A program made the translations under genes and the position numbers. This document shows positions 7,800 to 38,003 of a stretch of 48,953 nucleotides of DNA, piece after piece; the first letter of the stretch is position 1, and the number at the start of each line of letters is the position of its first letter. Source of the DNA: an uncultured Lachnospiraceae bacterium (lineage in GTDB: Bacteria > Bacillota > Clostridia > Lachnospirales > Lachnospiraceae); assembly GCA_905234595.1 (NCBI GenBank), contig CAJOID010000003.1, positions 1-48,953 on the forward strand. The letters run 5' to 3'. The notes under the pieces are model-generated. The model worked only from the letters and a program-made list of their open reading frames with translations, did no database searches and was not told where the DNA came from.

Positions 7800-7828
7800 T
7801 TGACAGAGCAGAAAAAAAGAAATAAGCC

Positions 7829-7857
7829 TTGATTTATCCGCAGGCATCCGATATAAT
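7829..7857 (+). promoter_or_regulatory. Promoter of left tRNA-Gln
   Basis: TTGATT (7829-7834), a 17-bp spacer and TATAAT (7852-7857) lie 24 bp before the tRNA. The same promoter layout, with related bases around it, precedes the right-hand tRNA-Gln at 37871-37899. Confidence 0.8.
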
Positions 7858-7880
7858 CATTTTCTGTTGAAAGTAACATA

Positions 7881-7929
7881 TAGCGGTATCGCCAAATGGT
7901 AAGGCAACGGACTCTGACTCCGTCATTTC
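7881..7929 (+). repeat. attL core: 49-bp direct repeat (left copy)
   Basis: The 49 bases from the base before the tRNA-Gln start to just after the anticodon arm are identical to 37922-37970. One mismatch then precedes another 13 identical bases (T-loop region). The two copies are offset by 30,041 bp and bracket the integrase and relaxase genes, as expected for attachment sites of a tRNA-targeting integrase. The exact crossover point inside the repeat cannot be seen. Confidence 0.85.
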
Positions 7930-7953
7930 AAGGTTCGAATCCTTGTAGCGCTG
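7882..7953 (+). tRNA. tRNA-Gln (CTG), left copy, acceptor-stem mismatch
   Basis: This is a 72-nt cloverleaf. The acceptor is AGCGGTA, the D arm GCC/GGC, the anticodon stem ACGGA/TCCGT around loop CTCTGAC (anticodon CTG at 7914-7916), and the T arm CAAGG-TTCGAAT-CCTTG. The 3' acceptor strand is TAGCGCT with G discriminator. CCA is not encoded. The acceptor has one mismatch: G5 faces G68, whereas the right-hand copy is fully paired. Bases 7881-7929 are identical to the right copy, so this gene is probably a hybrid whose 3' part came with the mobile element. Whether it is still charged well is open. Confidence 0.9.
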
Positions 7954-7958
7954 CTAAT

Positions 7959-9106: not shown

Positions 9107-9322
9107 ATGGGTGAAATGAAATCAATGACCGGTAACGAAGACTATTCAGTACTGTCAGCCAAAGAACTGGCGGAGAGACTGCATATAGGCAGAGACAAAG
9201 CCTATGCGCTGATCAAAAGCAAGAGCTTTCCGTCTATTAAGCTTGGCGGGCGATATATTGTCACTCTGAAAGCTCTGAATGAGTGGCTGGATCAGTACGA
9301 GTATAAGACATTTGCAGTATAA
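9107..9322 (+). CDS. xis: Excisionase-type helix-turn-helix protein
   Basis: This 71-residue protein consists of a single winged helix of the HTH_17/Xis family: SAKELAERLHIGRDKAYAL, then FPSIKLGGRYIVTLKALNEW. A strong AAGGAGG site precedes the ATG. It ends 10 nt before the integrase start. Such proteins bend DNA at the element ends and steer the integrase towards excision (Tn916 Xis). A role as a general transcription factor is possible, but position and size favour excisionase. Confidence 0.88.
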   Translation: MGEMKSMTGNEDYSVLSAKELAERLHIGRDKAYALIKSKSFPSIKLGGRYIVTLKALNEWLDQYEYKTFAV

Positions 9323-9332
9323 GGAGCAGGAG

Positions 9333-10601
9333 ATGTCTGAAAGAGCCGTAAAGGGCCAGGGTTCTTTTAAAGAAAACCCTGACGGAACAATCACATATCG
9401 TAAAGGTGTAGGTCTTAAGGATGACGGACGCAGGAAAACTCTGACGGTTACCGCTAAGAATCGTGCAGTATGTATGCGTCTGATGCAGGAGAAAGAGGAT
9501 AAATGGTTCAGGACCCGCTCTAATGGTGCCATTCTTGGATCGGACACTGTTGAGGAAATGTGCTTCAGGCATCTCCAGTATCAGATGGATGGCGGGGAGC
9601 TTAAGCCAAAATCTGCTGACAGACGTGAAGTAACTATAAAGAATCAGATAAGTGGATACTTTATAGGCAAGATGCAGGTACAGGCAGTTTCTTCTTCTGA
9701 TGTTGAGTCTCATATCAGCTGCCTGATACAGAAAGGATTATCATCTTCAACCATTGTCAAAGCGCTTGATGTGATAAATGCAGCTTATGAGTGGAGCGTT
9801 ATGAGAGGCGATGTGGAGTCTAATCCGGTTCTGCCTATAAAGAAGGGAATTAAAAAGCGTCTGTCCAAACTTGATTCCAAGACAGCTTCTGATGCAGATG
9901 TTATAGTCCTGTCGGTTGAGGAAGAGACGAAGTTCCTTGAGGAATGCCTTAAACGGTGGCCCACCGGACGATACGTATATTCCGGGGGATTATTTGGTCG
10001 GCTGTTACTCCATACGGGAATGCGTGTTGGGGAGATGATCAGTCTCAGATGGCGGGATTATGACAAGGAAACGGGCTTGCTGACCATAAACAAGAGCACG
10101 GCGATGGTGCGAAACCGTGATCAGAAGGCTGGCGAGAAGAATTATATCACGTCCGTGGGAACAACCAAGAATCAAAAGGCCAGGGTAATACAGCTTAGTG
10201 AAGAAGCGGTTCATGATCTTCAACTGATATATGAAAGAATGCCCGGAAGCGCAAACTGCCTTATCTGCAGATCTAAGAACGGGAATCCTTACACGGACAC
10301 GATGATGGAGCACTGTATGTCAACTATTTATAAGCATCTTGGATTTGATTCGAGCGTGAGCGGACTTCATGTACTCCGCAGAACGTTTGCAACGAGGATG
10401 TATGATAACGGCGCCGGAGTAAAGGAGATAGCTGCATACATAGGGGATCTGGAATCAACAACGATGCAATACTACATAGCTGCAAGAAAGAAAATGAAAG
10501 TCGGGGCAACTACGAAACAGTTTGTACCGATGCCGGGAAAAGGCAACGGAGTAAAAACAGATGAAGTAAAGAGGGAAGGTAATGGCGGTACTAAAGAATA
10601 A
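9333..10601 (+). CDS. int: Tyrosine recombinase (integrase)
   Basis: This 422-residue site-specific integrase of the phage/Tn916 type begins with an arm-binding beta domain (VKGQGSFKENPDGTITYRKG). A SAM-like core-binding domain follows (about residues 65-170), then the catalytic domain. Visible catalytic residues are the Arg in HTGMRVGEMISLRW, the Lys in TTKNQKARVIQL, HxxR in HVLRRTFATRM, and the nucleophile Tyr in STTMQYYIA. The usual LGH is IGD here. I chose ATG 9333 because AGGAG lies just upstream; the longer frame from 9279 would overlap xis. It should recombine the tRNA-Gln repeats. Confidence 0.95.
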   Translation: MSERAVKGQGSFKENPDGTITYRKGVGLKDDGRRKTLTVTAKNRAVCMRLMQEKEDKWFRTRSNGAILGSDTVEEMCFRHLQYQMDGGELKPKSADRREVTIKNQISGYFIGKMQVQAVSSSDVESHISCLIQKGLSSSTIVKALDVINAAYEWSVMRGDVESNPVLPIKKGIKKRLSKLDSKTASDADVIVLSVEEETKFLEECLKRWPTGRYVYSGGLFGRLLLHTGMRVGEMISLRWRDYDKETGLLTINKSTAMVRNRDQKAGEKNYITSVGTTKNQKARVIQLSEEAVHDLQLIYERMPGSANCLICRSKNGNPYTDTMMEHCMSTIYKHLGFDSSVSGLHVLRRTFATRMYDNGAGVKEIAAYIGDLESTTMQYYIAARKKMKVGATTKQFVPMPGKGNGVKTDEVKREGNGGTKE

Positions 10602-11064
10602 AACAGCAGGGAATTATATATGTGTATCCCAGGTTATTACACATGACCACGGATTGTCTCTTGTGGAACGAGGGTTATTGCTTACCCTTTTATCTCTCCC
10701 GGACAACTGGCACCTGACGGTCAAGGGGTTGCAGCAGATACTGCCGGACGGCAAAGACAGGATAACCAACGCGCTTAACGGTCTGATAGATAAAGGCTAT
10801 GTGACCAAAGAGCAGGAACGTGGAGAAGCTGGTAAGTTCGCAACAAATATCCTGGAGGTTCATGATTCACCGATGACGGGAAACCCGGTAGCGGAAAACC
10901 CGCCAGCGGCTAAACCGTCACCGGGAAATCGGCCACAAGATTATAAATATATATCAAATAATCAAGAATACTACAAACATAAGAGAAAGCCGAATCCGTT
11001 CAATCAATACGAACAGCATACATATGACTACGAAGCTTTGGAGAAGGCACTCATCTGTAACTGA
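10582..11064 (+). CDS. Helix-turn-helix replication-type protein
   Basis: This 160-residue protein has an N-terminal winged helix (about residues 10-85: LSLVERGLLLTLLSLPDNWHL, TNALNGLIDKGYVTKE) like that of plasmid and ICE replication initiators and phage replisome organisers. A Pro-rich linker (MTGNPVAENPPAAKPSPG) and a polar tail ending near a YDYEALEKAL helix follow. It overlaps the integrase end by 20 nt and precedes parM. A role in replication of the excised circle is inferred; a transcription regulator is the alternative. Confidence 0.65.
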   Translation: MAVLKNKTAGNYICVSQVITHDHGLSLVERGLLLTLLSLPDNWHLTVKGLQQILPDGKDRITNALNGLIDKGYVTKEQERGEAGKFATNILEVHDSPMTGNPVAENPPAAKPSPGNRPQDYKYISNNQEYYKHKRKPNPFNQYEQHTYDYEALEKALICN

Positions 11065-11087
11065 TGTCGGTCAAAAAGGAGGAGATT

Positions 11088-12026
11088 ATGGACGTTAAAT
11101 GCATTCAGGGAGACAAAACTCCCGCAACTATCATAGCCGTTGACAATGGAAACGGTAACACAAAGACAGAGCATCTGCATTTTAAAAGTGGTGTGGATGT
11201 CTACATGCAGGAACCCACACTTAACAAGGATTATTTCCTGATTGATGGGAAGTATTATGTTGTGGGCGAAAGCCATATGACATATCAGGGTGATAAGACA
11301 AATTCTGATGAATGTTACATTCTGACCATGGCAGCGATAACCATGGAGCTGGAATACAGACAAATGACCACGGCACAGATAATCCTGTCGGTCGGTCTGC
11401 CACTCGGATGGTGTGGCAAAGACAAAAAGGAAGAGCTTAAAACTTATATGCTTCGGTCGCGCAGTGTAGATGTTATGCATCATGATATGAATTATCATTT
11501 CGAGATAGTTGATGTAGATGTATATCCTCAGGGGTTTGCGGCAATCTGCGGTCGGTATGCGATGAATGGGATAAACATGATAGCTGATATCGGCAACGGC
11601 ACCATAAATATGATGCAGATCAAGGATGGAATCCCGAAAGAAAGCAGCATATATACAGAAAAGATGGGAGTCGCAAGATGTGTTGATGATATCAGGAAAG
11701 AACTCTCCGAAATGTATGCCGATGATGTTCCGGAGGATATGTTTGAAAGCTATCTGATCAATGGCACTGCAGGTAAGACAGGGAAGGTTGTTGATGTCGT
11801 CAGGAGGATAGCCGGCAGCTACAGTGAAGAGGTTATTAAGAGGATCTACAGTTATGGATTTAAGGAAGATCTGATGACGCTTTATATAATCGGTGGCGGA
11901 GGACGGATACTTAAGAATTTTTCAGAGTTCTGGAAGATACCAAGGGTGATATTCATAGATGATATCTGTGCCAATGCGAAGGGGTTTGCATTACTGAGCA
12001 GTCAAAAGATTCAGAGGACAAAGTGA
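11088..12026 (+). CDS. parM: ParM/Alp-like actin-type segregation ATPase
   Basis: This 312-residue protein of the actin/Hsp70 ATPase superfamily is the plasmid ParM/StbA type. The phosphate-1 loop AVDNGNGNTK, phosphate-2 loop IADIGNGTINMM and adenosine motif YIIGGGGRIL are all present. ParM filaments push plasmid copies apart. Start ATG 11088 is preferred because AAAGGAGG stands 5 nt upstream; the ATG at 11064 overlaps the preceding stop but has no such site. The gene for its likely centromere-binding partner follows after 1 nt. A partition system on an integrated element suggests an extrachromosomal phase. Confidence 0.87.
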   Translation: MDVKCIQGDKTPATIIAVDNGNGNTKTEHLHFKSGVDVYMQEPTLNKDYFLIDGKYYVVGESHMTYQGDKTNSDECYILTMAAITMELEYRQMTTAQIILSVGLPLGWCGKDKKEELKTYMLRSRSVDVMHHDMNYHFEIVDVDVYPQGFAAICGRYAMNGINMIADIGNGTINMMQIKDGIPKESSIYTEKMGVARCVDDIRKELSEMYADDVPEDMFESYLINGTAGKTGKVVDVVRRIAGSYSEEVIKRIYSYGFKEDLMTLYIIGGGGRILKNFSEFWKIPRVIFIDDICANAKGFALLSSQKIQRTK

Positions 12027-13050: not shown

Positions 13051-13431
13051 ATGCGTAAGCGAAACAAAGCCGTATATATCCGCATGAACGATGCTGAATA
13101 TGACCAGCTCCTGTCAAAGGTGGCTGAGTCGGGCGTCAGCATCCAGTCGTATATGGTAAGTGCTGCCTTGGGTGCACATCTGACTACTGCACAGGAAATG
13201 GCTGCCCTTAATGACCAGAACCGACTGTTTGCTGATATGGACAAGCAGCTCCGTGGTATGGGAACCAACTTAAACCAGCTTGCCCATACTGCCAACGCGA
13301 CAGGCTCGCTGCCGTCGCACAGGCAGTTGGAAGAGCTTGGCGATGAAGTATCTGAGCTCAGAAAGGAAATTGGAAATATATGGCGATCAACAAGACTGTC
13401 AATAAATCCTCAAAATCCCACGGGGCAATGA
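13051..13431 (+). CDS. mobC: MobC relaxosome accessory protein
   Basis: This 126-residue protein of the MobC family has an N-terminal ribbon-helix-helix (RNKAVYIRMNDAEYDQLL, VSIQSYMVSAAL) and the typical MobC helix with GTNLNQLAHTANATG. It binds near oriT and helps the relaxase nick. A GAGGAGG site precedes ATG 13051. The end overlaps the relaxase gene by 52 nt, a usual arrangement in MOBP elements. Confidence 0.93.
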   Translation: MRKRNKAVYIRMNDAEYDQLLSKVAESGVSIQSYMVSAALGAHLTTAQEMAALNDQNRLFADMDKQLRGMGTNLNQLAHTANATGSLPSHRQLEELGDEVSELRKEIGNIWRSTRLSINPQNPTGQ

Positions 13432-14660
13432 GGAACTGCATAGAGTATGTACTCAGGGATGAAAAGGTACGTGATGGATTGTGTATGGTCACCGGACCGT
13501 TCGTGGCGGAAGAGATTAACTATGATACCGTATATAATGCTTTTCTCGATGAAAAGAGGATATGGGATAAGGATTCTGCCAGGATGTATGCCCATAACAT
13601 CATATCTTTCCATAAGGATGAGAACATAACCGCAGAAGATGCGTATCAGTTTGGGATCGATTTTGCGGAGAAGTGGTTTGATGGGTTTCAGACTCTTGTG
13701 GCGGTGCATCAGGATAAGGATCATATCCATATCCACATGGTGACCAACAGCGTGAGCTACATAGATGGTCATAAACTCCATAATTCCCGGAATGACTTAC
13801 AGAGGATGAAGGATCTGACCAATCAGATGTGTATGGACCGGGGACTCACAATAGCCGTGAAAGGACATCACTTTGACGGATCGCTTATGGAGCAGTATGA
13901 AATATCGACATGGTCCAAGGATAAGTTCAATCTGCTGGTGAATGATTCTAAAAAGAGCTATCTGGCGGATTGCGGACTGGCTATAGACGGAGTCCTTGCT
14001 AAAGGATGTGAATCCAGAGAGCAGTTCATCGCAGGGATGCTTGAGGCAGGATGGAGTGTTACATGGACGGACAGCAGGAAGAATATCACATTTGAAAATG
14101 AGGATGGCAAGAAAGTAAGAGATACCAATCTTAATAAGACATTCAACTTAAATGTCGGAAAGGAGGTACTGTATGCCGAATTTGAGAGACGTAAGAACGA
14201 AAGAGAACGAATTAAGCAGCAACAGCTTGACAGAGACAGACAGCAACTATCAGATGAGCAGCTCAGACAGTACTATGCAGAAGTCGAATCAGCTGTCACC
14301 GGAGCAGGAGCTGATACGGAAGCAGTCGGATACGATCAGACAGCTGACCCGGGAGAGGGATCGACTGTTAGCAGAGGGGAGACCGGAAGACCGGGAGAAG
14401 ATTTCGACGCTTTCCTCGCAGAATTTGACGCTAGAGAACAAGATGTCGGAAATGCAGTCAGATCATCAATCCGAGATAGCAGACATGAACGCCGAAATAT
14501 CAGCATTGCGGAATCAGAATCAGTCACTAATGAACACCGTTCAATCGCTTACGAGGAGCAACGACGACTTGAGGAACAGGAATGGCTTGATGCTGAGAGA
14601 GAAGCAGGAGAAGTTGGAGGACGATCTTGCGTCAGCTTTGAATCTGATATCGATCTCTGA
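13380..14660 (+). CDS. mobA: MOBP-type relaxase (MobA/VirD2 family)
   Basis: This 426-residue relaxase nicks oriT and leads the transferred strand. The N-terminal nuclease domain begins MAINKTVNKSSKSHGAM and includes a candidate catalytic Tyr in CIEYVL. It has the RMYAHNIISFHKDE motif and the metal-binding three-His motif HIHIH (H115, H117, H119). The C-terminal 160 residues are charged and of low complexity. From 14173 on, that part shares its DNA with the next gene in another frame. Cognate oriT-like DNA lies upstream of mobC. Confidence 0.93.
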   Translation: MAINKTVNKSSKSHGAMRNCIEYVLRDEKVRDGLCMVTGPFVAEEINYDTVYNAFLDEKRIWDKDSARMYAHNIISFHKDENITAEDAYQFGIDFAEKWFDGFQTLVAVHQDKDHIHIHMVTNSVSYIDGHKLHNSRNDLQRMKDLTNQMCMDRGLTIAVKGHHFDGSLMEQYEISTWSKDKFNLLVNDSKKSYLADCGLAIDGVLAKGCESREQFIAGMLEAGWSVTWTDSRKNITFENEDGKKVRDTNLNKTFNLNVGKEVLYAEFERRKNERERIKQQQLDRDRQQLSDEQLRQYYAEVESAVTGAGADTEAVGYDQTADPGEGSTVSRGETGRPGEDFDAFLAEFDAREQDVGNAVRSSIRDSRHERRNISIAESESVTNEHRSIAYEEQRRLEEQEWLDAEREAGEVGGRSCVSFESDIDL

Positions 14661-15639: not shown

Positions 15640-15807
15640 CGAGCAATTATTGAATATAACCGCAAAATTATGGCCGGGACACTATCTTAAATGTCAGAAT
15701 GATTGATGATTAGACTGAGAATTGGTACAATCGTGTGGAAAGTGATTTTCGTGGAGCTGAATTAAACTGGATTTAGATATCTATGAGTAGATTTATGTAG
15801 GTGTATC

Positions 15808-16767
15808 ATGCTAAAGAAGAAACTCTCCATAGAAGAGCAGATAGAAGATTTAAAGTCAAAGAATGTGAAATTTGAACTGTACAATGTTGAGGAAGCAAAA
15901 AAATTCCTTCAGTATAACAACTATTATTTTAAACTTAAGTCTTATGCTCGGAATTATACGAAATATAGTAAAACCGAGGATAAGAATAAGTATATTAATC
16001 TGGATTTTGCCTATCTGGTAGAACTTAGTTCATTAGATAGTCTTCTGAGAAGAGTAATTGTGGGATTATGTCTTGATATTGAACACGTTATCAAAACAAG
16101 ATTTATGCGGGATATAACTAATAATACAAAAGAAGATGGATATGAAATCGTAAAAAAATATATAGACATGGATTACTCGGTGTTAGTTGCCCTTTATTCG
16201 AATAAGGATAGGTCGGCGACAAAAGAACTTATTGAGAAGATAAAGGATAATGAAGAAGAAATACCGGTTTGGAAAATGATAGAAGTTCTTTCGCTTGGTC
16301 GTTTTATAGAGTTATACACTCTGTATTATGATACCTATGGCGGGAGTTCTTACTCTTCATATCTTGGGAGCGTCAAATTTTTACGAAATGCTGCAGCACA
16401 TAATACCTGCTTGTTGAATTCATTAAGAAAACCGTACGCGATAAAGATTAACAAGTGTATGGATATCATGGATGCGTTGTCTAAGTCTAAGAAATTCGAA
16501 ACGAGTTATAAAACCAAGATGGAAAATCCGGTTATACATGATTTTGTGGTAACGCTGTTTGTATATTATGATGCGCTTAATACAGTGGGAAACAGAAGTG
16601 TTCGCGACAGAGGAATGGCGGAGATACAACAATTATTCTTTGATACCATGTTGCGAAATAAGGATTATTTTGTTAAGAATGATGTAATAGTTTCCGATTA
16701 TAGATATATATGTCAGGTTATTGAATACTTAGAGAACTGCAGAAATAAGCCTGTTTTGAAAAAATGA
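15808..16767 (+). CDS. abiF: Abi_2/AbiF-type HEPN abortive infection protein
   Basis: This 319-residue protein of the Abi_2 (AbiD/AbiF) family carries the N-terminal signature KKKLSIEEQIEDLKSKNVKF and YNNYYFKLKSYARNY. The HEPN-type ribonuclease motif RxxxxH is RNAAAH (R193, H198). Such proteins cut RNA and stop growth upon phage infection. The gene is markedly AT-rich against its neighbours, a sign of separate acquisition. Its TGA stop is followed at once by the promoter of a small structured RNA, as in loci with the abiF RNA motif, in which the RNA is thought to act with or against the protein. Confidence 0.88.
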   Translation: MLKKKLSIEEQIEDLKSKNVKFELYNVEEAKKFLQYNNYYFKLKSYARNYTKYSKTEDKNKYINLDFAYLVELSSLDSLLRRVIVGLCLDIEHVIKTRFMRDITNNTKEDGYEIVKKYIDMDYSVLVALYSNKDRSATKELIEKIKDNEEEIPVWKMIEVLSLGRFIELYTLYYDTYGGSSYSSYLGSVKFLRNAAAHNTCLLNSLRKPYAIKINKCMDIMDALSKSKKFETSYKTKMENPVIHDFVVTLFVYYDALNTVGNRSVRDRGMAEIQQLFFDTMLRNKDYFVKNDVIVSDYRYICQVIEYLENCRNKPVLKK

Positions 16768-16796
16768 TTGACGCAGTTGATCACAAGACATATAAT
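16768..16796 (+). promoter_or_regulatory. Near-consensus promoter for small RNA after abiF
   Basis: TTGACG (16768-16773), a 17-bp spacer and TATAAT (16791-16796). The -35 box begins at the base after the abiF stop codon. Confidence 0.85.
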
Positions 16797-16802
16797 TAAA
16801 CC

Positions 16803-16896
16803 AACGAACGAAAACCTTCGAGGTTTTCAGCGGAAGCGGTGCCAGCATCAATTCCGTACTTGAAGAAACTAGAACACTTTCGGGTGTTCTTTTTTC
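16803..16896 (+). ncRNA. abiF-associated structured small RNA (about 94 nt)
   Basis: Transcription from the promoter at 16768 should start near 16803 and stop at a Rho-independent terminator, giving about 94 nt. Three hairpins are visible: GAAAACC/GGTTTTC around a TTCGA loop (16810-16828); CGGAA/TTCCG (16831-16856) with a GC-rich inside; and the terminator AGAACAC/GTGTTCT (16871-16890) with a T run to 16895. No coding frame is evident. Placement directly after an AbiF gene matches the abiF RNA motif described for such loci, where the RNA is a likely antitoxin or guide partner. I could not match it to a covariance model. Confidence 0.72.
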
Positions 16897-16956
16897 ATGT
16901 TCCCAGTAGATTTGAGTGATTTCGAGCAGTTCTCGCTATAGTAGATTGACTTGCAT

Positions 16957-16998
16957 GCCCTCCGGCGCTTAGATTTAGTTAAGCGCAGGAGGGCTTTT
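16957..16998 (+). terminator. Repeated hairpin element, copy 1 (directly before XRE gene)
   Basis: GCCCTCC (16957-16963) pairs with GGAGGGC (16988-16994). Inside, GCGCTTA pairs with TAAGCGC around an AGATTTAG loop, and TTTTATT follows. It ends only 3 nt before the ATG at 17002, so it acts either as a terminator for upstream transcripts or as a structure over the ribosome-binding region. A second copy, with the same loop and similar 5' flank (GATTNACTTG), is at 21950. Confidence 0.6.
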
Positions 16999-17001
16999 AT
17001 T

Positions 17002-17970
17002 ATGGACAAATACAAAACAGGTGAGCTGATACGCACAGCCAGGACAAATAAAGGATATACCCAGACAGAGCTCGGAGATCTGATCGGAGTAACCAATAAA
17101 GCGGTTTCCCGCTGGGAGAAAGGCGAGAGTTTTCCGGATGTCGGACTGCTGGAGGATATTGCCAGAGTGCTTGACCTGAAGATAGAGCAGCTTGTGACAG
17201 GTGATGATGTGAGCGGAGGAGAAAACGGTGCCGATGCAGTAGTCGGTGATACAGAAGGATCCGGCGCCGGTCAGGCAGATATTTCAGATTCAGAGACAAG
17301 GGAGGAGATCATGGTTGATATGGTACGTACAGTGAAGATGCAGCAAAAAGAGAAATCCCGGATGATTCGTCGTGTACTGCTTCCGGTATTAGCGTATGGT
17401 TTGATGATACTGCACGGATTTATTCTGCTGTCAGATCAGCATGCTCAGTACAGGATGTCCCGGATTGATTCAATTATTATGATCTGTGTATACGTGTTGA
17501 TCATTGTATCCGTTGTCCGTCAAAAGGAATCGTTTATAAAGCCGTTTGATCGAATGTCGGCGGTATTGTGCGGTGCGGAAGCGTTTTGCGCGATATACAG
17601 CATAGCGATAACAGTCTGGTGCATATCTTCAATAGAGGAAGGCAGGATACCGTTTGGATTGGAACTCCATCAGGTTGGACCGGTACTGGCGTGGCAGCTG
17701 ATAGCATGTGCGATGTTCTCTGTTGGTATTGCAGCGATCACGATGTTCAGGTACATCAGACGGGAGGTGCCGCTCACCATCGAAAGTATTATATGTGTGA
17801 TGTCGTTCTATATTGCGACTGTATACAGACTTCTGCTTGGAAGATGCGATACACTTGATGGATTCCGCACAATTCTATACAAGGAAACCGTTGTTATCAT
17901 TGCAGCCTTTGTGATTGCGATAGTGTTTACATGCGTAGTAAGAAGAGTCATGCGAAAGGATATGGCATAG
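17002..17970 (+). CDS. Membrane-anchored XRE-family regulator
   Basis: This 322-residue protein has an N-terminal XRE helix-turn-helix (about residues 4-65: GELIRTARTNKGYTQTELGD, AVSRWEKGESFPDVGLLEDI). An acidic linker is followed by about six membrane helices from residue 130 to the end. HTH proteins with membrane tails usually sense envelope or extracellular signals and regulate a neighbouring operon. The ATG at 17002 is where the HTH alignment begins. No standard ribosome-binding site is free, because the repeated hairpin lies immediately upstream. Target genes are unknown. Confidence 0.8.
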   Translation: MDKYKTGELIRTARTNKGYTQTELGDLIGVTNKAVSRWEKGESFPDVGLLEDIARVLDLKIEQLVTGDDVSGGENGADAVVGDTEGSGAGQADISDSETREEIMVDMVRTVKMQQKEKSRMIRRVLLPVLAYGLMILHGFILLSDQHAQYRMSRIDSIIMICVYVLIIVSVVRQKESFIKPFDRMSAVLCGAEAFCAIYSIAITVWCISSIEEGRIPFGLELHQVGPVLAWQLIACAMFSVGIAAITMFRYIRREVPLTIESIICVMSFYIATVYRLLLGRCDTLDGFRTILYKETVVIIAAFVIAIVFTCVVRRVMRKDMA

Positions 17971-18850: not shown

Positions 18851-18875
18851 ACGCTGATAATTGAGGAACTCTTCT

Positions 18876-19643
18876 ATGAGAATAGCTATTTGTGACGATA
18901 ATCCCGAAGCGGTCAGAGCTGCTACGAGACATGTGATCAGGCAGGGCTATAATGACCATATAACCATATTTGACTCCGCTGACAAGATGAATCCGGACGA
19001 ACTGTGCGGTTATGACATTCTGTTCATGGATATCGACATGGGGGCGTCCTTTGATTTATCCGGATCATTCGGTGGAATGGATATGGCGAAAAAGATCAGG
19101 GACAGACAGTCGGATCTGCACATTCCGGGCTACAGCAGTCTGCCGCTGATCATATTTATTACCGGGTATAAGGAGTATATGAGTGAGGCTTTCGGAGTAT
19201 ATGCCTTCGATTACCTGGTAAAACCCGTGTCAGATGCTGCTTTTGACAGGACATACAAGCGGGCATATGATCTCATAAATGAGATGAATGATATGGATGA
19301 TACGGATGATATTCTCACTGTGCATATCCTTGGAGAAGTCTATTCAATCCGCATCTCCGAGATAACCTATGCAGAAAGCATCAGCCGCAAGAATATCATA
19401 CATCTGGTGAATCGGTCTCCGATAGAGTATTACGGCTCCATTGCCGAACTGGAGAGTGAACTGCCGGCATCTTTTTTCAGGATTCATAAAGGATTCATAG
19501 TGAACATGGCTCATATTATCAAATATGATAGATCGTCAGTTACGGTCGAGGGTGGTGGATGTCTGATGATGTCAAAGTACAGATATCCTGAATTTACCGC
19601 TTCATATATGGAGTATATTGGAAGTAAAGGTCGTGAACTATGA
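18876..19643 (+). CDS. LytTR-family response regulator (AgrA-like), copy A
   Basis: This 255-residue protein has a receiver domain (MRIAICDD with acidic pocket, phospho-acceptor Asp in LFMDIDMG, Lys in YLVKPVSD) and a C-terminal LytTR DNA-binding domain (about residues 150-250: ISEITYAESISRKNI, FFRIHKGFIVNMAHI). LytTR regulators bind two direct repeats about 21 bp apart. ATG 18876 follows a GAGGAA site; the frame also opens at a TTG 15 nt earlier. It overlaps the kinase gene by 4 nt. It is the likely reader of the paired boxes in this element. Confidence 0.93.
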   Translation: MRIAICDDNPEAVRAATRHVIRQGYNDHITIFDSADKMNPDELCGYDILFMDIDMGASFDLSGSFGGMDMAKKIRDRQSDLHIPGYSSLPLIIFITGYKEYMSEAFGVYAFDYLVKPVSDAAFDRTYKRAYDLINEMNDMDDTDDILTVHILGEVYSIRISEITYAESISRKNIIHLVNRSPIEYYGSIAELESELPASFFRIHKGFIVNMAHIIKYDRSSVTVEGGGCLMMSKYRYPEFTASYMEYIGSKGREL

Positions 19644-21025
19644 CCGCGGAAGATACTTATAAAGTATTAATGGACATAACGGGATTCGTTAGATGCGGTA
19701 TCCTGATTGCACTCCTTGCCGCATTGTGGAAAAGGATCATCTCAGAGGACATACGGACAAGGCGTATGATCCTCTTTCTTATTCTGTTCTTTTATCTGAA
19801 CTTTTCGGATCATCTTAGTATTCCGACGGCGATCAAGTATCCGATGGTCATCGGATTTGTAGCCGTTTATTGCTATGTCCTCAAACTGTGTGAGTGGGAA
19901 AGACCGGTATTTCTGCTTCTCTTTGTTTATAACCTCCACACAGTGTCATATCTGATCGCGGACAGTATATATCTGGAAACTGCCGATATGCTTATCGATC
20001 GGGTTGATATGGATCAACCGGATGCCATAGAGCGGATATATTTATCCTCGTATTTCAGTATGGCATTGCTTCTGATAGCGGAAGCCGTCCTGATCTTCGT
20101 TCTGTACCGGATATTTATCCGGCTAAGCATCGATCTTTCCGGATTGAGACTCTGGGAGTTCATGTTTTTATCAGCATTAAATGTGTTTGGAATAGTGTTC
20201 TCATATACCATGCTGAAGCTCAGTATCATACAGATGGATACCTCGACATTTATACTTTATGATGATGCACCTGATATGATATGGAAGATACCGCTTCTGT
20301 CCTCACTCCTGCTGGTCGGGGAGTATTCCTCTCTGTATGTTTTCTCCCGGTATAAAAAGTATCTCGGCGAAAGAGAATATCTTTACATGAGAGAACAGGA
20401 CTTAAGGTCGCTCCGGGATCGCGTAGAGGAGTCACAGGTGCTCTATGGGAGTATGCAGACACTCCGACATGACATCAACAATCATATCCAGACGATACGC
20501 GGCCTGATCGATGCCGGTGAGCAGGCTCGGGCAAAGAAATATTTTGACAGGATCACTGAACTGACAGATGGTATGGATATGAGATACAGTACCGGAAATG
20601 CTCTGTGTGATGTTGTGCTGAACGATAAAAGCAGGCTTGCCGACCGGTATGGCATAAACATGGAAGTGAGCTTCATATATCCCGAGGGAATAAGCGATTT
20701 TGATATGGGGATCATCCTGTCTAATCTGCTGGATAACGCTATCGAGGCGTGTGAAAAGCTGGGATCCAAAGACCGTATCATAGATGTGTCTCTAAGGACG
20801 GAGGGGCCGTGTGTGCTGCTGACAGTGGCGAATCCGTATGACGGAGATGTCATATTCGATAAGGAATCCGGATTACCCGTTTCCACAAAGCCTGACGGCG
20901 TACACGGACTGGGTCTTGCCAATGTTGCCATGATCGCCGAGGATCATCTGGGACGAATTATGATAAATGCTGAAGGAGGTGTTTTTTCCGTATCAGTCAT
21001 GCTGCAGCTAAGCTCGGATTCATAG
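19640..21025 (+). CDS. GHKL sensor histidine kinase (AgrC-like), copy A
   Basis: This 461-residue kinase has about six or seven membrane helices in residues 10-230, then a short coiled coil. The phosphorylation helix has LRHDINNHIQTI, and the ATPase domain has the N box LSNLLDNAIEAC and G box HGLGLANV. The architecture is that of AgrC-type kinases, which usually sense peptides. No AgrB/AgrD or other evident peptide gene lies nearby, so the signal is unknown. It is translationally coupled to regulator A. Confidence 0.92.
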   Translation: MTAEDTYKVLMDITGFVRCGILIALLAALWKRIISEDIRTRRMILFLILFFYLNFSDHLSIPTAIKYPMVIGFVAVYCYVLKLCEWERPVFLLLFVYNLHTVSYLIADSIYLETADMLIDRVDMDQPDAIERIYLSSYFSMALLLIAEAVLIFVLYRIFIRLSIDLSGLRLWEFMFLSALNVFGIVFSYTMLKLSIIQMDTSTFILYDDAPDMIWKIPLLSSLLLVGEYSSLYVFSRYKKYLGEREYLYMREQDLRSLRDRVEESQVLYGSMQTLRHDINNHIQTIRGLIDAGEQARAKKYFDRITELTDGMDMRYSTGNALCDVVLNDKSRLADRYGINMEVSFIYPEGISDFDMGIILSNLLDNAIEACEKLGSKDRIIDVSLRTEGPCVLLTVANPYDGDVIFDKESGLPVSTKPDGVHGLGLANVAMIAEDHLGRIMINAEGGVFSVSVMLQLSSDS

Positions 21026-21913: not shown

Positions 21914-21949
21914 TGGAAGCGCCATATAGACAGGTGGATTTACTTGTAA

Positions 21950-21994
21950 GCCCTCCGGTGTAAAGATTTAGGTAAGCGCAGGAGGGCTTGTTTT
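21950..21994 (+). terminator. Repeated hairpin element, copy 2 (after FliD-like gene A)
   Basis: GCCCTCC (21950-21956) pairs with GGAGGGC (21981-21987), with AGATTTAG in the loop region and TTGTTTT after. The inner stem keeps G-U pairs where copy 1 has G-C pairs, so pairing is conserved at RNA level. It works as a terminator for the FliD-like gene A transcript. Confidence 0.7.
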
Positions 21995-22121
21995 AAAATA
22001 TTATATGTTGTATATCATTATGCTTACGGGTGTTTTGGTTTTGGGATACCTGTTGGTTACCTCTCCGATGTAGTACGGTCGCATCGATTATGGCGAGGTG
22101 ATTATATAACCGGATTGTGCT

Positions 22122-32759: not shown

Positions 32760-33602
32760 ATGAAGATAGCAATTTGTGACGATGAAAAGGATATCAGAAA
32801 TTACATAGAGAAGTGCGTGCATGAAATCGCCCCGCAAAGTGAAACTATACAGTATGAGGACGGGCGCGATATACTGCGCCCCGATTTCGATGCCGACATC
32901 CTCTTTCTGGACATCCAGATGCCCGGCATGGATGGGATGAAAGCCGCCCGTATCCTGCGCACAACGCACACTATGTCAACACATGATCAGAATATATCCG
33001 GCGGTTCTCTTAATCAGCATTTCTCCAAACCCGTCATAGTGTTCGTGACTGCCGTGGAGGAATATGTATTTCAGGCATTTGATGTGGGTGCAGTCCGGTA
33101 TATCGTAAAGCCTTTTGAAAAGAGCAGGCTTCTTGATACGATCAGGCAAGCCCTGGCCATAGCGGAGGATCAGCGATCCATATCGGATTTCCTGTCCGCG
33201 GGCGTGGATGATCGCGATAAACCGCGGTATATTACGGTCAAAAGCGGAGGGGTCAACACGAGAGTCATATTGACTGATATCGTTTACGCGGAGGTATTCG
33301 ACAGGCGCGTCGTGCTGCATATGCAGGATCGGGAGTGCATAGAATACTACGGCCGGATGACAGAGCTTGAGCGGGTCGCGGGTTCGGACTTCTTCCGTCC
33401 TCACAGAGCGTATCTGATCAATCTGAGATTCGTGAGTTCATATGACAGCCGGACAGTCTGTGTACAGGGGACTGTCATTCCCGTGGCCCGCGGTAAGTAC
33501 CGCGAGCTGGTACGGGCATACATGTCTTATGTTACTGACGATATAGCGCGTTCCGGTATATCCACTCGCACACAGGAGAACCCCGATGAATGTAAGCCTT
33601 GA
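32760..33602 (+). CDS. LytTR-family response regulator, copy B
   Basis: This 280-residue protein has a receiver domain (MKIAICDDEKD, phospho-acceptor Asp in LFLDIQMPGMDG, Lys in YIVKPFEKS) and a C-terminal LytTR domain (LTDIVYAEVFDRRVV, FFRPHRAYLINLRFV, PVARGKYRELV). It is a paralogue of the regulator at 18876, with different surface loops and a His-containing insert in the receiver. GCGGGAG precedes ATG. It overlaps the kinase B gene by 17 nt. It probably reads the same box type. Confidence 0.93.
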   Translation: MKIAICDDEKDIRNYIEKCVHEIAPQSETIQYEDGRDILRPDFDADILFLDIQMPGMDGMKAARILRTTHTMSTHDQNISGGSLNQHFSKPVIVFVTAVEEYVFQAFDVGAVRYIVKPFEKSRLLDTIRQALAIAEDQRSISDFLSAGVDDRDKPRYITVKSGGVNTRVILTDIVYAEVFDRRVVLHMQDRECIEYYGRMTELERVAGSDFFRPHRAYLINLRFVSSYDSRTVCVQGTVIPVARGKYRELVRAYMSYVTDDIARSGISTRTQENPDECKP

Positions 33603-34965
33603 TTTCTTTGACAGATTTATACAGATAGTACTTGAGATATTCTATCTCGCGAGTGCCGTACTGTTTTACTACTGGCTTTCCCCATTTATTATCAGGAAAA
33701 GAGCATTATACGCAGCCTCGTTTCTATATTGGGCAATAAGCCTCATACCTCGGTTCGGGGACTTTCCGGTATGGTGCAACCGGCTTTTCGGCATACTGGC
33801 TTTCATCGTGCCGGTCACTATATTGTATTTTCTGGATAAGCGGTGTAACCCGCTGCAAAAGATTTTCCTGTGTGCGATCTTTTCACTGATCTGGTGGATA
33901 GTGATGGAGGTTATGTCGGAACTTGGATTCTATCAGCGAGATATCAGTTATTCGCCAGTAAGCGTGACGGCTCTCGTGATCGGCTTTATAGCCTATAACA
34001 TTTTGTATTACGGCTTCGGTGCCGCGATCATGTTCTTTTCTTTCAGACTTCTCCACCGGACTTATAAGAGGAAGCAGGAGGAACTGACATGGCGCGAATT
34101 CGTAATGCTTCTTGCACCCACCGGTTCTATGCTGGCTGTAAAGCCCATAGTGCGTGACTACTTTCTGCTGTGGATGCAGGGTATCGAGAACGGCAGCATT
34201 GAGCAGAACATCCCCGGTAACCCTTTTCGTATCCTCTTTTGCATCCTGTCTTATGTGTCCATGCTCGTGATCCTGATATTCTATCAACAGATCAAGGATA
34301 ATCAGGAAGAGGAGTATGCGCGACGCGCGCTGGAGAGTCAGACGGAGGATATGCACAGGCATATGGAGCAGATCGAGGAGACATACGAGAGGATGCGGGC
34401 CATGCGCCACGATATGGGTAATCATATGGCGGTGATACAGGGGCTGATCGAGAGCGGTGATCGTGATGCGGCATCGGATTATATCGGAGAGTGGAGGGAG
34501 AACTTCGGTGAAATGGGGATGTCGGTGAAGACGGGTAACCCTTTTACCGATGCGGCCATATCAGGGTTTGCGGACAGATTTGACGCCGCCGGTATCCCGT
34601 TTGAGCAGTCGTTTGTCTATCCGGATGAGCTGAGGATAGAGCCGTTTGATTTGTGTGTGGTGTTATCCAATGCCTTGCAAAATGCTTATGAGGCGTCTGT
34701 GAGCGTGAATGATCCGCATGTATCTCTGACATCAGTGCTCAGGAACAATACTTTCATCATCAATGTGAAGAACCGGATCGGTTCACGGGTTAATATAGAT
34801 AAGGAAGCGGGCATTCCGTATTCATCGAAAAAGGAAGACGGGCACGGCTACGGTCTTAAGAACATCCGAAACATCGCCCACAAATATAACGGCGATATAG
34901 ACATCCGCCAGGAGAACGACGGGCGTTATATGACATTTGTTTTAAATGTGATGCTGATCGGCTGA
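33586..34965 (+). CDS. GHKL sensor histidine kinase, copy B
   Basis: This 459-residue kinase has about six membrane helices in residues 12-235, a coiled-coil linker, the phosphorylation helix with MRHDMGNHMAVI, the N box LSNALQNAYEAS and the G box HGYGLKNI. It has the same layout as kinase A but diverged in the sensor part, so the two may answer different signals while feeding the same promoters. ATG 33586 follows AGGAGAACCCCG. No peptide-pheromone gene is seen next to it. Confidence 0.92.
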   Translation: MNVSLDFFDRFIQIVLEIFYLASAVLFYYWLSPFIIRKRALYAASFLYWAISLIPRFGDFPVWCNRLFGILAFIVPVTILYFLDKRCNPLQKIFLCAIFSLIWWIVMEVMSELGFYQRDISYSPVSVTALVIGFIAYNILYYGFGAAIMFFSFRLLHRTYKRKQEELTWREFVMLLAPTGSMLAVKPIVRDYFLLWMQGIENGSIEQNIPGNPFRILFCILSYVSMLVILIFYQQIKDNQEEEYARRALESQTEDMHRHMEQIEETYERMRAMRHDMGNHMAVIQGLIESGDRDAASDYIGEWRENFGEMGMSVKTGNPFTDAAISGFADRFDAAGIPFEQSFVYPDELRIEPFDLCVVLSNALQNAYEASVSVNDPHVSLTSVLRNNTFIINVKNRIGSRVNIDKEAGIPYSSKKEDGHGYGLKNIRNIAHKYNGDIDIRQENDGRYMTFVLNVMLIG

Positions 34966-37798: not shown

Positions 37799-37870
37799 GG
37801 GACTTCGAGGAAGTTTTGAATTAAGATGAAATGAAGACATTGATCGCGTATAGATTTTTCTAAAAACCCC

Positions 37871-37899
37871 TTGATTTATCTACATTCTTCCGTTATAAT
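37871..37899 (+). promoter_or_regulatory. Promoter of right tRNA-Gln
   Basis: TTGATT (37871-37876), a 17-bp spacer and TATAAT (37894-37899). It lies on the element side of the right repeat, so the element brings its own tRNA promoter. Confidence 0.8.
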
Positions 37900-37921
37900 C
37901 ATTTTCTGTCGAAAAGATATT

Positions 37922-37970
37922 TAGCGGTATCGCCAAATGGTAAGGCAACGGACTCTGACTCCGTCATTTC
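37922..37970 (+). repeat. attR core: 49-bp direct repeat (right copy)
   Basis: Identical to 7881-7929. It marks the right boundary of the integrated element. Confidence 0.85.
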
Positions 37971-37994
37971 TAGGTTCGAATCCTAGTACCGCTG
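37923..37994 (+). tRNA. tRNA-Gln (CTG), right copy, fully paired
   Basis: This is a 72-nt cloverleaf with fully complementary acceptor stem AGCGGTA/TACCGCT, D arm GCC/GGC, anticodon stem ACGGA/TCCGT, anticodon CTG at 37955-37957, T arm CTAGG/CCTAG and discriminator G. CCA is not encoded. Its 3' part and terminator adjoin the chromosome, and its promoter and 5' part adjoin the element. It is likely the working copy. Confidence 0.93.
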
Positions 37995-38003
37995 CTTATG
38001 GAT

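What the first reader, a model, noticed from the sequence alone, without database searches (positions are those of the whole stretch)
15808..16896. AbiF HEPN protein plus adjacent small structured RNA: likely RNA toxin-antitoxin
Seen: an Abi_2 protein with RNAAAH motif, AT-rich, whose stop codon abuts a near-consensus promoter; a ~94-nt RNA with three hairpins and a strong terminator follows. Known: AbiF genes are associated with a conserved abiF RNA motif, and AbiF-type systems have been linked to the ancestry of Cas13. Inferred: the RNA restrains the nuclease until phage infection. The promoter is strong and separate, as expected for an antitoxin RNA.
Basis: partly seen in the sequence, partly recalled or inferred. 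Interest (0 to 1): 0.8.

Follow-up and report, generated by a model that had tools for sequence, protein, structure and literature searches.

The report
HEPN toxin with downstream RNA antitoxin
A mobile element in a gut-type bacterium carries a gene for an RNA-cutting toxin (a distant cousin of the CRISPR enzyme Cas13) followed by a small folded RNA with its own promoter; the two travel as one unit across bacteria, and the RNA sometimes survives where the toxin is gone, as expected if the RNA is the antidote.

Summary
In detail: an Abi_2 HEPN protein (15808-16767, RNAAAH at 193-198) whose stop codon abuts TTGACG-17-TATAAT, then a ~91-nt three-hairpin RNA (about 16803-16893). The specific label does not: the RNA is not the Rfam abiF RNA (RF03085), and the protein lies outside the RF03085-associated AbiF clade.

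What is there is a sister branch of Abi_2 toxins with its own RNA, unlisted in Rfam, placed downstream of the gene. Among 79 relatives from genome contigs, 68 score with a covariance model at the gene's end; hairpin 2 covaries in 11 of 12 pairs; a near-consensus promoter sits at a fixed distance in 44 of 45. The block conserved between distant genomes is exactly gene + RNA + terminator. In five genomes the RNA stands without its toxin, twice behind a deletion remnant, while at most one intact toxin lacks it. The protein model matches PbAbiF (Z 16.3), whose RNA is a proven antitoxin.

Best reading: a type III-like toxin-antitoxin/abortive infection module with reversed gene order; a new variant of a known kind. 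The 2025 AbiF paper could not be read and may already cover this RNA. No toxicity, binding or phage data exist for this clade.

The parts
15808..16767 (+). abi gene, 319 aa Abi_2/HEPN protein (candidate ribonuclease toxin)
   Evidence: PF07751 77.5 bits; PADLOC AbiD 80.9 bits; AF2 model pLDDT 93, Z 16.3 to PbAbiF 8vz6
16384..16401 (+). HEPN catalytic motif RNAAAH (residues 193-198)
   Evidence: R193, N194, A197, H198 invariant in 58 relatives
15799..15803 (+). probable ribosome binding site AGGTG
   Evidence: read from the sequence
15703..15731 (+). possible weak promoter of the abi gene (TTGATG-17-TACAAT, 9/12)
   Evidence: consensus scan only; not tested further
16768..16796 (+). dedicated promoter of the RNA (TTGACG-17-TATAAT)
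   Evidence: 11/12; same placement, -10 ending 7-11 nt before the RNA core, in 44 of 45 loci incl. the window, mean 10.7/12 against 6.8 shuffled
16803..16893 (+). small structured RNA, candidate antitoxin (ends predicted)
   Evidence: fold z -2.87; CM R1 hit 16806-16863, 73.4 bits (the window is one of the sequences the model was built from); orphan copy aligns over 16802-16899 only
16810..16828 (+). hairpin 1 (A-rich/U-rich stem)
16830..16857 (+). hairpin 2, most conserved part, loop CCAG, 2x2 internal loop GC/AA
   Evidence: 34 distinct sequences: 11 of 12 pairs with changes on both sides, covariation score 0.640 vs 0.333 shuffled, 0/500
16871..16894 (+). intrinsic terminator hairpin and U-run
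   Evidence: stem-loop kept in close relatives

Best explanation
A two-part toxin-antitoxin module that works like a type III system. The Abi_2 protein is a HEPN ribonuclease that dimerises and cuts cellular RNA. The small RNA, made continuously from its own promoter that begins right at the toxin's stop codon, folds into two conserved hairpins, binds the protein and blocks the active site. When RNA supply falls (phage take-over of transcription, or loss of the mobile element), the RNA decays first, the nuclease is freed, and the cell stops growing, which aborts infection or penalises loss of the element. Shown here: gene and RNA are a conserved unit, the RNA structure covaries, the promoter is conserved, the fold is that of PbAbiF, the RNA persists without the toxin but hardly the reverse. 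Inferred: toxicity, binding, ribonuclease activity, the trigger.
For: Conserved block between the window and the closest relatives is exactly 15803/15820-16895/16902 with unrelated flanks. RNA hit at the end of the gene in 68 of 79 relatives by covariance model. Covariation of hairpin 2. Fixed strong promoter. In 348 + 392 genomes the RNA model rings almost only at this locus type. RNA without its cognate toxin in five genomes: an in-frame deletion remnant (L169), a 48-aa C-terminal remnant in a single-contig genome with no Abi_2 (L170), and three copies behind an unrelated small ORF (L166, L181, L182). Fold match Z 16.3, 271 residues, 3.6 A to PbAbiF bound to ncRNA; Cas13d at Z 6.7. R and H of the HEPN motif invariant; in C. 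difficile AbiF the equivalent R202/H207 are needed for toxicity and its RNA neutralises the toxin by direct binding (PMC12373285). RNA subtypes follow protein clades.
Against: No experiment on this clade. RNA differs in sequence and shape from RF03085, so the characterised RNA-protein contacts cannot be transferred. No tandem repeats, unlike ToxI. One intact relative (L076) has no recognisable RNA in the 108 nt before its contig ends. Two of the three orphan copies behind the small ORF are decaying (L182 hairpin 2, L181 terminator). Deletion of a toxin with its RNA kept could also be neutral drift.
Confidence: 0.75

Rival explanations
1. The RNA acts only in cis: it is a 3' UTR/terminator structure that sets the level or stability of abi mRNA, not an antitoxin in trans.
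For: RNA lies directly downstream; in part of the clade hairpin 2 is itself the terminator; read-through from abi would include it.
Against: Dedicated promoter at a fixed distance; orphan copy in G297 without abi keeps exactly the RNA from predicted start to terminator; RNA kept after toxin deletions.
Confidence: 0.12
2. The RNA is an antisense (type I-like) repressor of abi translation.
For: Own promoter, small RNA next to a toxin gene.
Against: Same strand as the gene; no complementarity to the translation start in seven loci, nor to the window's whole mRNA, beyond shuffles; conserved structure instead.
Confidence: 0.03
3. The RNA is an activator or guide (proto-CRISPR) that directs the HEPN nuclease to targets.
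For: AbiF is regarded as ancestral to Cas13 (PMC12737573; PMC12373285); Cas13d appears in the fold list.
Against: No variable guide-like segment: the RNA core is 92-98% identical among relatives whose coding DNA is 68-78% identical; RNA survives where the toxin is gone.
Confidence: 0.05
4. A toxin-antitoxin module kept mainly for maintenance of the mobile element rather than for phage defence (an alternative purpose, not an alternative mechanism).
For: Sits on a mobilisable element with integrase, actin-like partition protein, MobC and relaxase; module moves between contexts as a unit.
Against: Abi_2 family members are known phage-resistance genes (PMC12373285, PMC12322248); not mutually exclusive with the main explanation.
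Confidence: 0.35

Closest known systems
AbiF-RCd22 of Clostridioides difficile phi027 (and phiC2)
   Same: Abi_2 HEPN toxin with a structured ~100-nt RNA antitoxin, SigA promoter, direct binding shown there (PMC12373285).
   Different: There the RNA is upstream, shares the toxin's promoter and carries RF03085 (phiC2: hit 75 nt before the gene); protein only 23% identical over 211 aa, motif RNQCAH not RNAAAH; here RNA is downstream with its own promoter and another structure.
PbAbiF-ncRNA (PDB 8vz6, Zilberzwige-Tal et al. 2025)
   Same: Same fold, Z 16.3 over 271 residues; profile hit E 4.1e-6; RNA antitoxin.
   Different: 14% identity; its RNA sequence and gene order could not be compared here; the paper is not in the library.
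Rfam RF03085 abiF RNA
   Same: Small hairpin RNA beside Abi_2 genes.
   Different: No match at E 10; different stem and loop; 10 of 11 RF03085 loci with an Abi_2 gene found here have the RNA at the 5' side.
Type III toxin-antitoxin systems (ToxIN, TenpIN, CptIN)
   Same: Ribonuclease toxin with RNA antitoxin (by inference).
   Different: HEPN fold instead of the ToxN fold (own knowledge for ToxN); no tandem repeats; RNA after, not before, the toxin.
AbiD of PADLOC / Lactococcus
   Same: Best PADLOC model.
   Different: Scores 73-97 bits in this clade against 303-347 for RF03085-type proteins.

Membership tests
Abi_2 (PF07751) | score over the curated cut-off | tested here: met
   77.5 bits vs 25.6
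HEPN ribonucleases | RxxxxH motif and helical HEPN fold | tested here: met
   RNAAAH, R and H invariant in 58 sequences; model pLDDT 93, Z 16.3 to 8vz6
HEPN ribonucleases | RNA cleavage | not testable with these tools
   needs an enzyme assay
AbiF system with RF03085 abiF RNA | RF03085 motif next to the gene | tested here: not met
   no match at gathering score or E 10; none in 16 relatives
AbiF system with RF03085 abiF RNA | protein inside the RF03085-associated clade | tested here: not met
   two sides of one branch, 100/100, in a tree of 86 proteins
Type III toxin-antitoxin | RNA gene beside a protein toxin gene as a conserved unit | tested here: met
Type III toxin-antitoxin | antitoxin RNA of tandem repeats upstream of the toxin, shared promoter | tested here: not met
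   no repeats, RNA downstream with own promoter
Type III toxin-antitoxin | toxicity of the protein and neutralisation by direct RNA binding | not testable with these tools
   needs expression and co-purification
Abortive infection system | phage protection with death or arrest of infected cells | not testable with these tools
   needs plaque and growth assays

The most novel reading that the evidence does not exclude
This is a second, separate class of AbiF-like RNA antitoxin, with its own RNA fold, reversed gene order and dedicated promoter, spread through Clostridia and Campylobacterota and not yet catalogued; stand-alone copies of the RNA, placed behind a small unrelated gene next to other toxin-antitoxin genes, act as anti-addiction shields against incoming toxin modules.
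Probability: 0.35. Interest if true: 0.68.

Novelty: new variant of a known kind. Interest (0 to 1): 0.52.

Why it matters
AbiF is held to be the ancestor of Cas13, and how an antitoxin RNA became a guide RNA is an open question. A deep sister branch with a different RNA and gene order gives a natural comparison: contacts shared by the two branches are likely ancestral. It also gives a searchable covariance model for RNA antitoxins that Rfam misses, and natural toxin-free RNAs to test anti-addiction.

Tried and rejected
Rfam at gathering and at E 10, whole window and 111-nt stretch: only chance hits. Close relatives by protein in viral contigs and RNA-core patterns in viral contigs: none, so no phage-borne copy of this subtype was seen there. 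Antisense pairing to the abi mRNA: no signal. Single-sequence search of solved structures: nothing meaningful; the profile was needed. NCBIfam: no family for any Abi_2 tested. MAFFT of all 19 first RNAs together aligned the hairpins poorly, so hairpin 2 was anchored on its loop; that anchoring favours paired hairpins, so the percentage of paired cells is biased, the shuffle and slide controls less so. A possible pairing of the hairpin-1 loop with the tail (seen in the orphan's fold) is not kept in L059 or L094 by eye and was dropped. RNA hits L172, L173, L174 and L184 look like chance terminators. The Weinberg 2017 paper on the abiF motif is not held.

Full report
What is in the window. The 319-aa protein at 15808-16767 is an Abi_2 protein (77.5 bits) with the HEPN motif RNAAAH at residues 193-198. 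Its stop codon TGA (16765-16767) is followed without a gap by TTGACG-17-TATAAT. The predicted transcript from about 16803 to 16893 folds into three hairpins (z -2.87), the last a terminator.

It is not the known abiF RNA. Rfam RF03085 does not match at the gathering score, nor at E 10 on the region or on 111 nt alone, nor in 16 relatives. The same model does find its own RNAs in this bacterial family and in phage phiC2. Eleven RF03085 loci, phiC2 included, have an Abi_2 gene close by: the RNA lies before the coding sequence in nine, overlaps the extended start of the open frame in one, and lies after the gene in one; their HEPN motif is RN[MILQ]CAH. A tree of 86 proteins splits RF03085-type and window-type proteins at one branch with 100/100 support. 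PADLOC's AbiD model gives 73-97 bits for the window clade and 303-347 for three RF03085-type proteins.

The RNA is real and belongs to the gene. A profile of the protein found 79 relatives in genome contigs. A covariance model built from 17 RNAs hits 68 of them on the sense strand at the end of the gene; nearly all start between -15 and +107 nt of the stop, and the few further upstream belong to frames with internal stops. Some of these 68 were used to build the model. Ten of the other eleven show a hairpin or two-hairpin variant by eye; one (L076) shows none before its contig ends. The first 18 relatives from whole genomes also carry a two-hairpin RNA after the gene by eye. Hairpin 2 covaries: 11 of 12 pairs have changes on both sides, score 0.640 against 0.333 in shuffles, 0 of 500, and well above all slid controls. 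Near-consensus promoters stand 7-11 nt before the RNA core in 44 of 45 loci, mean 10.7 of 12 against 6.8 in shuffles. Where the RNA starts only 7-16 nt after the stop, the promoter lies inside the end of the coding sequence.

The unit. Between the window and relatives with 71-86% protein identity, DNA similarity covers the gene, the RNA and its terminator and nothing on either side. Inside it the RNA core is 92-98% identical while the coding DNA is 68-78% and third codon positions about 50%. RNA subtypes follow protein clades: a compact form whose hairpin 2 is the terminator, the window form with a 2x2 internal loop and a separate terminator, and a third form with CUAG stems.

RNA without its toxin. 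In 348 genomes of the family and 392 of the order (overlapping sets) the model rings almost only at this kind of locus. Five cases lack the cognate toxin: L169, an in-frame deletion that joins the first and last codons of the gene before an intact RNA (that genome has a different Abi_2 about 3 kb away); L170, a 48-aa C-terminal remnant in a single-contig genome with no Abi_2; and L166, L181, L182, where the RNA follows a 54-57 aa acidic ORF. G297, the genome of L166, has no Abi_2; for G699 and G714 the neighbourhood was checked but the whole genome was not tested with the Pfam model. The RNA of L182 is broken in hairpin 2. Against this stands at most one intact toxin without RNA. Loss in this direction is what a toxin-antitoxin pair predicts; it is circumstantial.

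Fold. The AlphaFold2 model (pLDDT 93, pTM 0.90) matches PbAbiF bound to its ncRNA, 8vz6, at Z 16.3, 3.6 A over 271 residues; Cas13d follows at Z 6.7, which for a helical protein could be a common arrangement. PbAbiF and C. difficile AbiF are toxins held by an RNA antitoxin (PMC12373285, PMC12737573), and the R and H equivalent to R193 and H198 are needed for toxicity in C. difficile.

Setting. The gene sits on an apparently mobilisable element of lower G+C: tyrosine integrase 9279-10598, actin-like protein 11064-12023, MobC 13051-13428, relaxase 13380-14657. Two tRNA-Gln genes flank it at 7882 and 37923.

How it most likely works. By homology and the evidence above, the RNA binds and silences the HEPN nuclease; because it is short and must be made continuously from its own promoter, a block of host transcription would free the nuclease. 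The steps of toxicity, binding, cleavage and trigger are inferred, not shown.

Novelty. The kind (AbiF-type RNA toxin-antitoxin) is known since 2025. The variant here (another RNA family absent from Rfam, RNA downstream, own promoter, stand-alone copies) was not found in the papers that could be read. The key paper (Zilberzwige-Tal et al. 2025) is not held; PMC12804078 mentions its covariance models, including one named 'diverse_rna_xinsi', which may already include this RNA. Hence 'new variant of a known kind' with moderate interest.

Noticed in passing
L177:1067-1341; L181 and L182 (minus strand): A 54-57 aa acidic ORF without Pfam match (MANIRSV.DYKEFLKENRELLHKNAVRI.DLSPDDDW...) stands directly before the orphan antitoxin-like RNA in three genomes of two genera, in two of them next to a zeta-toxin gene. 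Possibly an antitoxin cluster.
   Followed up: partly
7820-7958 and 37862-37999: Two tRNA-Gln(CTG) genes, 94% alike over 81 nt, each with its own diverged promoter region (81%), flank the ~30-kb lower-GC mobilisable element.
   Followed up: partly
16941-17002 and 21934-21995: A 62-nt repeat (82%) containing an inverted repeat GCCCTCCGG...AGGAGGGC, one copy just upstream of the HTH_3 regulator gene that starts at 17002. Function unknown.
   Followed up: no
18861-21025 and 32760-34965: Two LytTR response regulator plus histidine-kinase-like pairs inside the element, resembling agr-type quorum regulators (kinases and the second regulator judged by reading only).
   Followed up: no
L178:5113-6003: A second, different Abi_2 gene (motif RNSCAH) about 3 kb from the toxin-less RNA in genome G292, beside a Fic-like and other toxin-antitoxin-like genes (judged by reading).
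   Followed up: partly
L003:602-703 (minus): RT-5 RNA (RF03026, 84.9 bits), a reverse-transcriptase-associated RNA by its name, about 0.7 kb from the window-type RNA of the 60%-identity relative.
   Followed up: no
L037 and L008 (genome G205): One genome carries both RNA classes: RF03085 in one contig and the window-type module in another.
   Followed up: no
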